NCBI RefSeq assembly: GCF_002355655.1
Contig: NZ_AP017569.1
Span: forward strand, 2,108,001-2,172,000
Source of the DNA: Halorubrum trapanicum
GTDB lineage: Archaea > Halobacteriota > Halobacteria > Halobacteriales > Haloferacaceae
DNA: 64,000 nucleotides
Direction of reading: 5' to 3'
Below the pieces are notes generated by a model. That model saw only the letters and a list, made by a program, of their open reading frames with translations. It was not told the DNA's origin and did not search any database. The translations under genes and the position numbers were made by a program. The first letter of the stretch is position 1. Every line of letters starts with the position of its first letter. Below, piece after piece: positions 7,963 through 42,526 of the stretch.

Positions 7963-8321
7963 TTTATAAATGGCAGTGCGGCGGCGCGTGCCTGCGAGCG
8001 GCCGCCCTTGGCGGCCGCGAGGAGCACGCGCGAGGGACGCCGCGAACGCCCGCAGGGCGTGAGCGGCGAGGTTGGGGAGGTGTGAGGTGCTGTGCGGAGC
8101 GGTGCGGGGCGGGACTCAAAGGGGCAGCCGTGAGGGCGGCGCAGGTGACGCAAGGACCGCAAGGAGGGAGCGGCAGCGACCGACTGAGGACCGCAGCGAG
8201 CGTGCGCCGCCCTCACGGCTGGGGCTTTGGAGGCGGTCGCCGTCGATCAACAGTCAGTGATTTATGAGTGAGCGGCTGGGCTTCGGCGGTGTTGACCGTG
8301 CCACCGCTAACTGCTTATAAA
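7963..8321 (+). repeat. Structured repeat element, copy 1
   Basis: First of four diverged copies of an unrecognised element. Order: TTTATAAAT box at 7963-7971; hairpin A 7984-8031 (stem GCGCGTGC with GCACGCGC, tandem GA/GA at 7996-7997 and 8019-8020, inner stem GCGGCCGCC with triloop CTT); hairpin B 8039-8067 (GCCGC:GCGGC, GA/GA at 8044-8045 and 8061-8062, ACGCCC:GGGCGT, triloop GCA); G-rich core ~8068-8124 ending GGGACTCAAAGGGG; long stem C, 19 bp perfect, 8125-8143 with 8203-8221; inner hairpin 8162-8185 with two tandem GA/GA steps separated by GG:CC; CTGGGGCTTTGG at 8219-8230; one further tail unit 57 bp on (8276); TATA-like box at 8315-8321. Sits in the convergent gap between the TrmB-type and mptA genes. 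Short GC-rich open frames across it are not credible genes. Confidence 0.8.
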
Positions 8322-17971: not shown

Positions 17972-18123
17972 GGCGGCGCTGGTTCGGGTTCCTCTGACAG
18001 TCCGGTTCCCGCTGAGACAGCCGGGAGACCGTGATCGCTTCCTGATCGGTAGCGGGAGTGAGTATCGCAGATCGCCGGCCGTGATGTCGGATTTAAATGA
18101 CCGAGAGCGATGCCGACGATCGC

Positions 18124-18470
18124 TTATAAATCCGGTTGCGGTCGGCGCGCCTGCGAGCGGCCGCCGATGGCGGCCGCGAGCCAGCCCGCGAGGGACGCGG
18201 TGAGCGACGTGGGCGACCGGAGGGAGCCCGGAGCGAACCGCGAGGCTGGGGAGGCGTGAGGCTGTGCGGTGCTGTGCGGGGCGGGACTCAAAGGGGCAGC
18301 CGTGAGGGCGTCGTAGGCGACGTAAGCACCGCAGGGAGCGAACGGAGTGAGCGACCGAGGAGCGCAGCGAGCGTACGACGCCCTCACGGCTGGGGCTTTG
18401 AAGGCACTCGCCGCAGTTGCGTCAGCCACTTATAAATAACCGACAGCAACACCGCGATCCGACTTATAAA
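18124..18470 (+). repeat. Structured repeat element, copy 2
   Basis: Second copy, same order as copy 1. TTATAAAT box at 18124-18131; hairpin A with inner stem 18157-18165 / 18169-18177, triloop GAT, flanked by GA/GA (18155-18156 with 18178-18179); hairpin B 18197-18241 (outer GCGGT:ACCGC) with three successive tandem GA/GA steps (18202/18235, 18206/18231, 18215/18224) and triloop GGA; G-rich core ending GGGACTCAAAGGGG at ~18296; stem C, 19 bp perfect, 18297-18315 with 18374-18392; inner hairpin 18334-18356, with GG:CC, GA/GA, GC:GC, GA/GA, AC:GT around triloop GGA; CTGGGGCTTTG at 18390-18400; TATA-like boxes at 18430-18437 and 18464-18470. Stem C differs from copy 1 at two pairs, both compensated. 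The tail units are decayed here. Confidence 0.8.
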
Positions 18471-18585
18471 CGCCCTCACTCACGACGTACTACACTCACT
18501 CCCGCTATGGATCGCCGTCGCGCCTGTGCTGAGCGATCGAGTATCGGAAACGGTCCATCGGATCGCGACGGAACCACCGCCACTA

Positions 18586-32661: not shown

Positions 32662-33058
32662 TTTATAAGCCGACTCGGGACACGGTGTTGGATGTTTATA
32701 AGTGATCGTCGACTCTGCGGTGAAGGCCGCCAAAGCCCCAGCCGCTCGCTTATAAATGGCTGCCAGCAGATCGGCGGCGACCGCCTCCAAAGCCCCAGCC
32801 GCGAGGGCTCGGTGCGCTCGCTGCGCGCCTCGGTCGCTCGCGCTGCTCGCTCCCTGCGGTGCTTACATCGCGCGCCTTCGCCCTCGCGGCTGCCCCTTTG
32901 AGTCCCGCCCCGCACAGCACCGCAACCTCACCCCTCCCCAACCTCGCGGTTCGCTCCGGGCTCCCTTCGGTCGCCCGTCGCTCACCGCGTCCCTCGCGCG
33001 TGCGACTCGCACCCTGCGGGCGCTCGTCGGCACGCGCCACCGCATCATTTTTTATAAG
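32662..33058 (-). repeat. Structured repeat element, copy 3 (minus strand)
   Basis: Third copy, reading leftward, with coordinates descending. TATA-like box at 33051-33058 (minus strand CTTATAAA); hairpin A 32996-33037 (GCGCGTGC:GCACGCGC, GAC:GTC, GA/GA); hairpin B 32946-32988 with three tandem GA/GA steps and triloop GAA; G-rich core ending in CTCAAAGGGG; stem C, 13 bp, 32880-32892 with 32796-32808; inner hairpin 32832-32853 with GG:CC, GA/GA, GC:GC, GA/GA, GC:GC around triloop AGC; CTGGGGCTTTGG at 32787-32798 and again, exactly 57 bp on, at 32730-32741; tail TATA-like boxes at 32750-32757, 32695-32701 and 32662-32669. It lies between two plus-strand genes, so any transcript would be antisense to neither coding region. 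Confidence 0.8.
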
Positions 33059-33137
33059 CGATCGCGCCGCATCTAACTGGCATTTAAACTGCGATCCCAC
33101 CCCGAGTTTTATCGCCGCTCGTTCGCTCTATTGGTTC

Positions 33138-42014: not shown

Positions 42015-42526
42015 TTTATAAATGACCGGGCGTGGCGGTGGCGCGTGCCGACGAGCGCCCAGCGGGCGCGAGTCGCACGCGCGAGGGAGTCGGCCGACCG
42101 GAGGGAGGCCGACGAGGCTGGGGAGGTGTGAGGCTGCGGTGCTGTGCGGGGCGGGACTCAAAGGGGCAGTCGGCGAGGCGGGCGCAGGCGTTCACGAGAG
42201 CAGAGCTCTCGTGAGCCAATCAGAACGCAGAGCGTTCTGATGACGACGTAAGCACTGGAAGGAGCGAGCAACGCGAGCGACTGAAGCGCGCAACGAGCGT
42301 GCGCCCGCCTCGCCGGCTGGGGCTTTGGCTGTGTCCGCTGCGGCGGCAGCGATTTATAAGCGAGCAGTTGGTGATTTGGCGGTGTCCACCGTTGATCCAT
42401 AGTCGACTATTTATAAACGAGCGGCTGAGGCTTTGGAGGCGTTTGCCGCCGATCCATAATCGACTATTTATAAGTGAGCGGATGGGGCTTTGGCGGCGTT
42501 CGCCGCAGACCCGCCGTATTTATAAA
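42015..42526 (+). repeat. Structured repeat element, copy 4 (longest)
   Basis: Fourth copy. TTTATAAAT box at 42015-42023; hairpin A 42041-42082 (GCGCGTGC:GCACGCGC, GAC:GTC, GA/GA at 42053-42054 with 42070-42071, GCGCCC:GGGCGC, triloop AGC); hairpin B 42089-42113 (GTCGGCC:GGCCGAC, GA/GA, CC:GG, triloop GGA); core with GGGACTCAAAGGGG; stem C, 20 bp with one G-T pair, 42167-42186 with 42300-42319. Inside stem C are two extra perfect hairpins absent from other copies (42192-42214, 10-bp stem; 42219-42241, 10-bp stem; both with AGA loops), then the inner hairpin 42260-42282, AG:CT, GA/GA, GC:GC, GA/GA, GC:GC around triloop AAC. CTGGGGCTTTGG is at 42317-42328, followed by a tail of 57-bp units. Confidence 0.82.
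42352..42526 (+). repeat. Tail array of 57-bp units in copy 4
   Basis: Tandem units starting ATTTATAA at 42352, 42409 and 42466 (period 57) with a fourth box at 42518. Each unit carries a version of GAGCGGcTGgGGCTTTGG (42368, 42425 and 42482 in phase) followed by a short GGCG...CGCC-type stem and GATCCATA-TCGACT. The same 57-bp spacing separates the CTGGGGCTTTGG motifs in copies 1 (8219 and 8276) and 3 (32798 and 32741). Confidence 0.8.

What the first reader, a model, noticed from the sequence alone, without database searches (positions are those of the whole stretch)
18124..18470. Four-copy family of structured intergenic elements with compensatory base changes
Regions 7963-8321, 18124-18470, 32662-33058 (minus) and 42015-42526 share one architecture: TATA-like box, hairpin A, hairpin B, G-rich core with GGGACTCAAAGGGG, long stem C enclosing an inner hairpin, and a tail with CTGGGGCTTTGG and more TATA-like boxes. 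The loops and core are conserved while stems drift together: stem C changes T:A to C:G between copies 1 and 3 and shows two compensated pair changes between copies 1 and 2. Paired change of both strands is evidence of selection on folding, in RNA or single-stranded DNA. I do not recognise the family.
Basis: partly seen in the sequence, partly recalled or inferred. Interest (0 to 1): 0.95.

Follow-up and report, generated by a model that had tools for sequence, protein, structure and literature searches.

The report
Haloarchaeal folded repeat with quadruplex signature
Salt-loving archaea carry many scattered, apparently non-coding copies (176 core matches in this genome) of one element whose folded shape is conserved while its sequence drifts; it likely persists as a slow mobile element that an unknown enzyme would recognise in folded form.

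Summary
The four copies belong to a family with 176 core matches in this Halorubrum-type genome, all on the main contig. A model of stem C hits 285 of 391 genomes of its class; Rfam has no match. Stem C covaries: 26 of 38 pairs change on both sides among 73 copies here, 34 of 38 among 60 matches from other genera. Its top is a ladder of 2-bp helices separated by conserved tandem G.A pairs. At its base two unpaired GGG tracts face each other, with GGG-N-GGG just upstream; all four tracts are intact in 113 of 121 copies here and 53 of 59 elsewhere, a G-quadruplex signature. The named copy spans 18051-18506, with exact 13-bp terminal inverted repeats; a sister species has the same unit in opposite orientation at the same site. 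Copies show no fixed orientation to genes, occupy sites sporadically, and share genus-specific paired changes. The 11 element-rich genomes tested lack RVT_1; three lack Y1 transposases. I read it as a slow, non-autonomous dispersed element recognised as a folded plus strand. DNA or RNA is unresolved: loop types favour DNA, folding energies favour RNA.

The parts
18051..18506 (+). complete copy 2 of the element (456 bp), the named copy
   Evidence: Exact 13-bp inverted repeats at both ends. In G038 a 435-bp unit with the same ends lies in opposite orientation at the same site (88.8% identical as reverse complement, flanks 84%)
18051..18063 (+). left terminal inverted repeat AGCGGGAGTGAGT
   Evidence: read; exact reverse complement of 18494-18506; terminal-repeat census
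18494..18506 (+). right terminal inverted repeat ACTCACTCCCGCT
18124..18130 (+). TATA-like box TTATAAA before hairpin A
   Evidence: in 74 of 114 own copies with a recognised head an A/T box ends 3-14 nt before the head (36 of 114 have none within 45 nt)
18138..18194 (+). hairpin A with tandem G.A
   Evidence: sequence; RNA folding of other own copies
18195..18254 (+). hairpin B and GAGGCTGGGGAGG motif
   Evidence: motif within 2 mismatches in 122 of 122 extracted own copies
18278..18285 (+). G tracts 1 and 2 (GGGG-C-GGG)
   Evidence: GGG-N1-2-GGG in 115 of 121 own copies and 52 of 60 other-genus matches
18283..18404 (+). stem C (122 nt): helix 1, GGG/GGG internal loop, long variable stem, G.A ladder
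   Evidence: alignments A1 and A2, pair counts; model R1
18289..18293 (+). helix 1, 5' arm CAAAG (pairs with 18396-18400)
   Evidence: CAAAG:CTTTG, CGAAG:CTTCG, GAAAG:CTTTC, GGAAG:CTTCC and AAAAG:CTTTT variants
18293..18296 (+). G tract 3
   Evidence: 120 of 121 own copies
18392..18395 (+). G tract 4
   Evidence: 121 of 121 own copies
18316..18373 (+). apical ladder: 2-bp helices between tandem G.A pairs, GNA or GNNA loop
18401..18493 (+). tail with two TATA-like boxes (18430-18436, 18464-18470)
   Evidence: a box starts 22-31 nt after CTTTGG in 101 of 121 own copies
7963..8321 (+). copy 1 (stem C 8111-8233)
   Evidence: same site occupied in other species
32662..33076 (-). copy 3 (stem C 32784-32906)
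42015..42526 (+). copy 4 (stem C 42153-42328, with extra inserted hairpins; tail of repeated TATA units); longer than the stems aligned in A1

Best explanation
It is a dispersed, apparently non-coding haloarchaeal repeat whose plus strand is conserved as a fold, and it likely spreads and persists as a slow, non-autonomous mobile element that an unidentified enzyme would recognise in folded single-stranded DNA form. Shown: copy number, class-wide distribution, covariation, conserved G.A ladder and four G tracts, exact terminal repeats of copy 2 and its opposite orientation in a sister species, genus-specific paired changes in the copies sampled, and sporadic occupancy of sites. Inferred: when the plus strand becomes single (replication, repair), stem C folds, the four G tracts are predicted to lock its base as a G-quadruplex in multimolar K+, and an enzyme acts on that fold; divergent dimers and terminal repeats would serve pairing of two ends. 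Gene conversion between copies probably spreads hairpin modules.
For: Fold: 26 of 38 pairs with changes on both sides, 322 both-side cells against 95.6 in shuffles; other genera 34 of 38, 534 against 165.5. Eight non-canonical G.A positions kept in 64-71 of 73 sequences. Four G tracts intact in 113 of 121 own copies and 53 of 59 elsewhere. Plus strand: outside mid-stem columns G.T 54 to A.C 7, other genera 52 to 14. DNA-type loops: GNA or GNYA in 62 of 71 own rows, GNRA in 1; GNA in 34 of 44 other-genus rows with an apical pair, GNRA and UNCG 0. That cGNAg and cGNNAg are especially stable in DNA is recalled, not from a call. Element-like behaviour: own copies lie between genes in all four arrangements; 13 of 44 scored loci of other genera are divergent dimers; the copy-2 unit lies in opposite orientation between the same ends in G038; 27 of 31 terminal-repeat matches flank 18 element cores, 9 of them on both sides (control 3); occupancy differs between species, and scars fuse GGGG or GGCTGGGG repeats. 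Genus-specific pair: C in all 44 core matches of 43 Halorubrum-titled loci (G partner found in 41), G in all 25 matches of 21 other haloarchaeal loci (C partner found in 19) (65 of the 80 listed loci were checked, one of them a Bacteroidales bin).
Against: No mobilising enzyme was found. Y1_Tnp has no match in three element-rich genomes and RVT_1 none in 11 of 11; no longer unit was seen between terminal repeats. Among the 121 of 176 own copies compared, the closest full-length paralogues are about 88% identical, and one pair 92.5% over 292 bases, so no recent burst is visible; pairs of 91.7-96.7% over 123-229 bases occur in three other genomes. The G.T excess shrinks over all columns: 64 to 29 here, 65 to 54 in other genera. 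Folding energies favour RNA: over 71 sequences RNA parameters recover 96.7% of covarying pairs (95.8% apical), DNA parameters 70.8% (16.1% apical). 47 of 121 own elements hold a cTNCGg string somewhere, not assigned to loops. Most own copies lack the terminal repeats. Opposite orientation at one site could also mean two separate insertions. Target duplication could not be established.
Confidence: 0.45

Rival explanations
1. A multicopy structured RNA: in Halorubrum each copy would be transcribed from its own TATA box and the RNA (hairpins A and B plus quadruplex-based stem C) would bind a shared protein, for example as a sponge or regulator. Genus-specific paired changes would reflect co-evolution with that protein.
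For: RNA parameters predict the covarying fold almost exactly while DNA parameters do not. TATA-like box 3-14 nt before hairpin A in 74 of 114. G.T excess on the plus strand outside the mid-stem. The fold is kept while sequences drift. Genus-specific change.
Against: From the usual TATA-to-start distance (recalled) transcripts would start about 17 nt inside the head, cutting off the 5' arm of hairpin A. TATA boxes are not evident upstream of the other-genus copies I read. Little orientation bias to the upstream gene (62 '+', 53 '-', 6 unknown). RNA-typical GNRA and UNCG apical loops nearly absent. No transcript data were available.
Confidence: 0.3
2. A host chromosomal site (topology, nucleoid or replication-related) where folding of the DNA matters and copies are kept because they organise the main chromosome.
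For: 176 of 176 own core matches on the main contig, 0 on the other 0.24 Mb (about 14 expected if even). With copy 2 as query 4 of 72,556 plasmid records match, none over 80% of it, and no phage record of 50,697; 1 viral contig for the exact 19-base core pattern. 8 to 17 copies per full 200-kb bin.
Against: Core matches vary from 0 to 192 within one genus. Strand use is near even (83 and 93), so no overall polarity. No core within 900 nt downstream of the copy-2 neighbour gene in 25 of 30 loci, though the next gene differs in several of these.
Confidence: 0.15
3. A derivative of a known IS200/IS605 or RAYT (Y1) system, i.e. PATE-like or REPIN-like.
For: High copy, extragenic, palindromic, inverted pairs, repeat-mediated core deletions and same-site opposite orientations resemble Haloquadratum PATEs and SwitchRepeats (passages of PMC3119063) and REPINs (abstracts in a listing).
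Against: No Y1_Tnp match in G111, G279 and G066, which hold 82, 81 and 56 model hits. Of 30 Y1 loci with 1.5-kb flanks only one holds a weak model hit (E 1.5e-4).
Confidence: 0.1

Closest known systems
REP/REPIN/BIME elements with RAYT transposases (bacteria; abstracts in listing)
   Same: Many extragenic copies, hairpins, inverted pairs, no coding capacity.
   Different: Stem C is about 120 nt, not the 20-40 bp given for REPs (abstract of PMC3733652 in listing); no Y1 match in three element-rich genomes; four-G-tract base and G.A ladder, which I do not recall for REPs.
PATEs and small mobile repeats of Haloquadratum walsbyi (PMC3119063, passages)
   Same: Transposase-free dispersed haloarchaeal repeats, divergent copies, core deletions between direct repeats, same-site opposite orientation.
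   Different: PATEs are defined by near-terminal palindromes related to IS605 ends and lack terminal inverted repeats; copy 2 here has a 13-bp exact terminal repeat and no IS605 link was seen; this family is class-wide.
BOX elements of Streptococcus pneumoniae (recalled)
   Same: Modular build with a repeated unit, stable folds, over 100 intergenic copies.
   Different: No sequence relation tested; BOX is confined to streptococci (recalled).
Integron attC sites (recalled)
   Same: Variable stem, fixed base, strand-specific recognition of a folded single strand.
   Different: No cassette arrays seen here; no integrase link tested.
G-quadruplexes of Haloferax volcanii (PMC12873603, abstract and passages)
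   Same: Reports G4s in haloarchaeal DNA and RNA in vivo.
   Different: The passages I saw name no dispersed hairpin element of this kind.

Membership tests
REP/REPIN with RAYT | mobilised by a Y1 (RAYT) transposase present in the genome | tested here: not met
   PF01797: 0 matches in G111, G279 and G066
REP/REPIN with RAYT | many extragenic copies | tested here: met
   176 core matches; 115 of 121 extracted copies overlap no gene predicted by my crude codon model
REP/REPIN with RAYT | pairs in inverted orientation | tested here: inconclusive
   13 of 44 scored other-genus loci are divergent dimers; own copies were not scored this way
REP/REPIN with RAYT | short palindrome of 20-40 bp | tested here: not met
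   stem C 122 nt
PATE (IS605-related) | ends related to IS605-type transposons | tested here: inconclusive
   stem-C model against 30 Y1 loci: one weak match, E 1.5e-4; termini were not compared
PATE (IS605-related) | no terminal inverted repeats | tested here: not met
   copy 2 has 13-bp exact repeats; 9 elements have both ends at <=1 mismatch; most copies have none
MITE | terminal inverted repeats | tested here: inconclusive
   18 elements with at least one end, 9 with both, of 176
MITE | ends shared with a transposase-bearing element | tested here: inconclusive
   31 terminal-repeat matches in the own genome: 27 flank element cores, 4 lie elsewhere and were not read; other genomes not searched
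MITE | target-site duplication | tested here: inconclusive
   no clean empty site among the loci printed for two sites
Retroelement | reverse transcriptase in the genome | tested here: not met
   PF00078 in 0 of 11 element-rich genomes; control rang in 3 of 14 known genomes
Rfam family | match to a curated covariance model | tested here: not met
cis-regulatory RNA (riboswitch-like) | constant orientation and position to downstream genes | tested here: not met
   downstream gene '-' 81, '+' 40 of 121 in the own genome; 28 '+', 15 '-', 1 unknown of 44 elsewhere
G-quadruplex element | four G3 tracts able to stack | tested here: met
   113 of 121 and 53 of 59
G-quadruplex element | quadruplex forms physically | not testable with these tools
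   needs spectroscopy or probing

The most novel reading that the evidence does not exclude
A class-wide haloarchaeal nucleic-acid machine not known before: a natural quadruplex-duplex hairpin, with a G.A-ladder arm and a four-tract G-quadruplex base, present in up to about 190 copies per genome and recognised as a folded strand by a dedicated, still unknown recombinase or binding protein that co-evolves with it genus by genus.
Probability: 0.3. Interest if true: 0.92.

Novelty: new variant of a known kind. Interest (0 to 1): 0.82.

Why it matters
A 3.1-Mb genome holds 176 core matches of a strongly covarying element that Rfam does not know, and relatives of it occur across its class. The seven literature searches I made did not show it in their listings; subscription papers and supplements were not searched. 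It offers an evolutionarily supported quadruplex candidate in cells with molar potassium (recalled), and same-site opposite orientation and genus-specific paired change that can be tested in culturable Halorubrum strains.

Tried and rejected
Known RNA family: Rfam at gathering threshold over the window gave only a tRNA, and E<=1 over the element gave nothing. Y1/RAYT or IS605 origin: three element-rich genomes lack Y1 matches and only 1 of 30 Y1 loci has a weak model hit. Retrotransposition: no RVT_1 in 11 genomes. Plasmid or phage carriage: 4 of 72,556 plasmid records with partial matches to copy 2, no phage record, 1 viral contig for the exact core. Replication-strand polarity: 83 against 93, no clear regional bias, no statistical test made. 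Gene-directed placement (terminator, leader): no consistent orientation across genera, though in this genome the downstream gene points at the element in 81 of 121. Minus-strand or cruciform function: G.T exceeds A.C outside the mid-stem, and the minus strand as RNA recovers only 30.1% of apical pairs; the minus strand of copy 2 still folds well overall (z -7.2). Recent burst in this genome: closest full-length paralogues about 88% identical among 121 copies. TATA boxes as insertion target: species without element or scar at the copy-1 site show no such box within 700 nt (part of that output was cut), but divergence makes this weak. Papers: PMC2864571 and PMC3733652 texts hold no word beginning 'Halo'; PMC7565180 passages name Halobacteria only in general statistics.

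Full report
What is there. The 17-base core GGGACTCAAAGGGGCAG has 83 forward and 93 reverse places in the window's genome at up to 3 mismatches, against 9 for the reversed control (reverse places listed). All 176 lie on the 2.84-Mb contig. I extracted 122 copies (121 after removing a duplicate signature) from 42 search loci, 60 fetched stretches and the window; the remaining places were not fetched. Each of the 122 carries the B motif GAGGCTGGGGAGG and a CTGGGGCTTTGG closing motif within 2 mismatches.

Fold of stem C. I aligned the 73 of 121 copies whose stem has the commonest lengths; the other 48 (45 longer, 3 shorter) were left out of this count. In the structure I drew, 94.1% of cells pair, 26 of 38 pairs change on both sides, and 322 cells carry double changes against a shuffled mean of 95.6. 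The best slid control gave 44 such cells and a covariation score of 0.060 against 0.342. The structure was derived from one of these sequences, which favours it over slid versions; two rows with an inverted apical part were kept in. Between the outer stem and the loop lies a ladder: 2-bp helices that covary, separated by G.A/A.G pairs kept in 64 to 71 of 73 sequences, and a nearly invariant GGG/GGG internal loop near the base. The helix below that loop also covaries: CAAAG:CTTTG with CGAAG:CTTCG inside this genome, and GAAAG:CTTTC, GGAAG:CTTCC and AAAAG:CTTTT in other genera.

How far it reaches. A covariance model (R1) hits 285 of 391 genomes of the class, 70 of 86 genera, with strict filters and at most 9 scored matches a genome. 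In 34 genomes chosen because they had hits, counts reach 82. From 44 other-genus loci 60 matches were aligned: 90.7% of cells pair, 34 of 38 pairs change on both sides, 534 double-change cells against 165.5 shuffled, score 0.562 against at most 0.076 slid. This alignment was fitted to the model and leans towards it. I checked 65 of the 80 listed loci. In 43 Halorubrum-titled loci all 44 core matches carry C at the pair next to AAAG (G partner found in 41); in 21 other haloarchaeal loci all 25 matches carry G (C partner found in 19). So a paired substitution separates the sampled copies of one genus from those of others.

Quadruplex signature. Immediately 5' of the core lies another G tract, so the order is GGG-N-GGG-ANTNAAA-GGG(G)-[stem]-(G)GGG. 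GGG-N1-2-GGG is present in 115 of 121 own copies and 52 of 60 other matches. All four tracts are intact in 113 of 121 and 53 of 59 (one partial match left out). These G's are unpaired in the fold yet hardly vary. A G-quadruplex is the simplest reason, but it is inferred. G4s have been reported in vivo in Haloferax volcanii DNA and RNA (PMC12873603, abstract and passages).

Which strand, RNA or DNA. G.T cells exceed A.C cells 54 to 7 outside the alternative mid-stem columns (64 to 29 over all), and 52 to 14 in other genera (65 to 54 over all). Read outside the mid-stem, this points to the plus strand as a single strand. RNA parameters recover 96.7% of the covarying pairs and 95.8% of apical ones, DNA parameters 70.8% and 16.1%, and the minus strand as RNA 73.7% and 30.1%. 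The covarying structure lies a mean 10.2 kcal/mol above the predicted minimum with DNA parameters and 7.4 with RNA parameters (medians 8.6 and 3.6). Against RNA, apical loops are GNA or GNYA in 62 of 71 own rows and GNA in 34 of 44 other rows with an apical pair, with one GNRA and no UNCG; such loops are, to my recall, the especially stable ones of DNA. 79 of 121 own elements contain GCGAAGC, to my recall the classic DNA mini-hairpin, and 47 of 121 contain a cTNCGg string somewhere. The question stays open; I lean to DNA because placement and rearrangement are DNA-like.

Behaviour as an element. A crude codon-model gene caller of my own gives all four neighbour arrangements: 39 -/-, 38 +/-, 24 +/+, 14 -/+, and 6 with the upstream side unknown; the downstream gene points at the element in 81 and away in 40. 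Six of 121 copies overlapped a predicted frame. In other genera, 44 of 57 loci could be scored (13 dropped): 22 single, 13 divergent dimers, 9 with a B-type motif upstream. At the copy-1 site, of 30 loci fetched (own included), 16 have the core in the same orientation (one of these, L134, has lost stem C between its GGGG runs), 1 has it inverted, 12 lack it within 900 nt (two of them with a scar fusing GGCTGGGG repeats), and 1 was not oriented. At the copy-2 site 5 of 30 have it, four of them in opposite orientation to the own copy, and 25 lack it within 900 nt; in several of these the next gene differs. In G038 the copy-2 unit has opposite orientation: both species have AGCGGGAGT at offset 82, the unit is 456 and 435 bp, 88.8% identical as reverse complement against 74.7% as is, with flanks 84% identical. 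In-place inversion is the simplest reading; two separate insertions are not excluded. The terminal repeat occurs 31 times at up to one mismatch in the genome (reversed control 3); 27 flank 18 cores, 9 on both sides.

What moves it is unknown. Y1_Tnp and RVT_1 do not explain it, and no longer unit was seen between terminal repeats. Among 121 own copies the closest full-length paralogues are about 88% identical, with one pair 92.5% over 292 bases, so spread here looks old; pairs of 91.7%, 93.0% and 96.7% over 123-229 bases occur in G111, G279 and G258. Hairpin B cassettes recur among copies and differ between copy-1 orthologues, by eye, which suggests module exchange.

Verdict. The best mechanism is a slow, non-autonomous dispersed element recognised as a folded plus strand, with a multicopy RNA as the strongest rival.

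Noticed in passing
L019, L081 and L104 (own genome): In one copy of each the apical part of stem C is inverted between the stem arms, turning the G.A ladder into T.C.
   Followed up: partly
window 42320-42526; L001: Tail units of about 57-63 bp (TATA box plus GGCTGGGGCTTTGG) repeat in tandem; 83 of 121 own copies have at least one extra unit, up to 5. They look like collapsed elements or promoter arrays.
   Followed up: partly
L008, L015, window 42153-42328: Extra palindromes with 3-nt loops sit at similar points of stem C in several copies, as if hairpins were swapped as cassettes.
   Followed up: no
G035, G043, G046, G047 (same genus): Congeneric genomes with 0 to 2 core matches; comparing their gene content with rich species might reveal the partner gene.
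   Followed up: no
L046 (G112): This copy has CCCC instead of GGGG in the 3' arm, which would give a perfect hairpin instead of the GGG/GGG loop.
   Followed up: no
L162, downstream of the copy-1 orthologue in G024: By eye, what looks like an IS200-type transposase gene lies where other species hold the element; not translated or searched.
   Followed up: no
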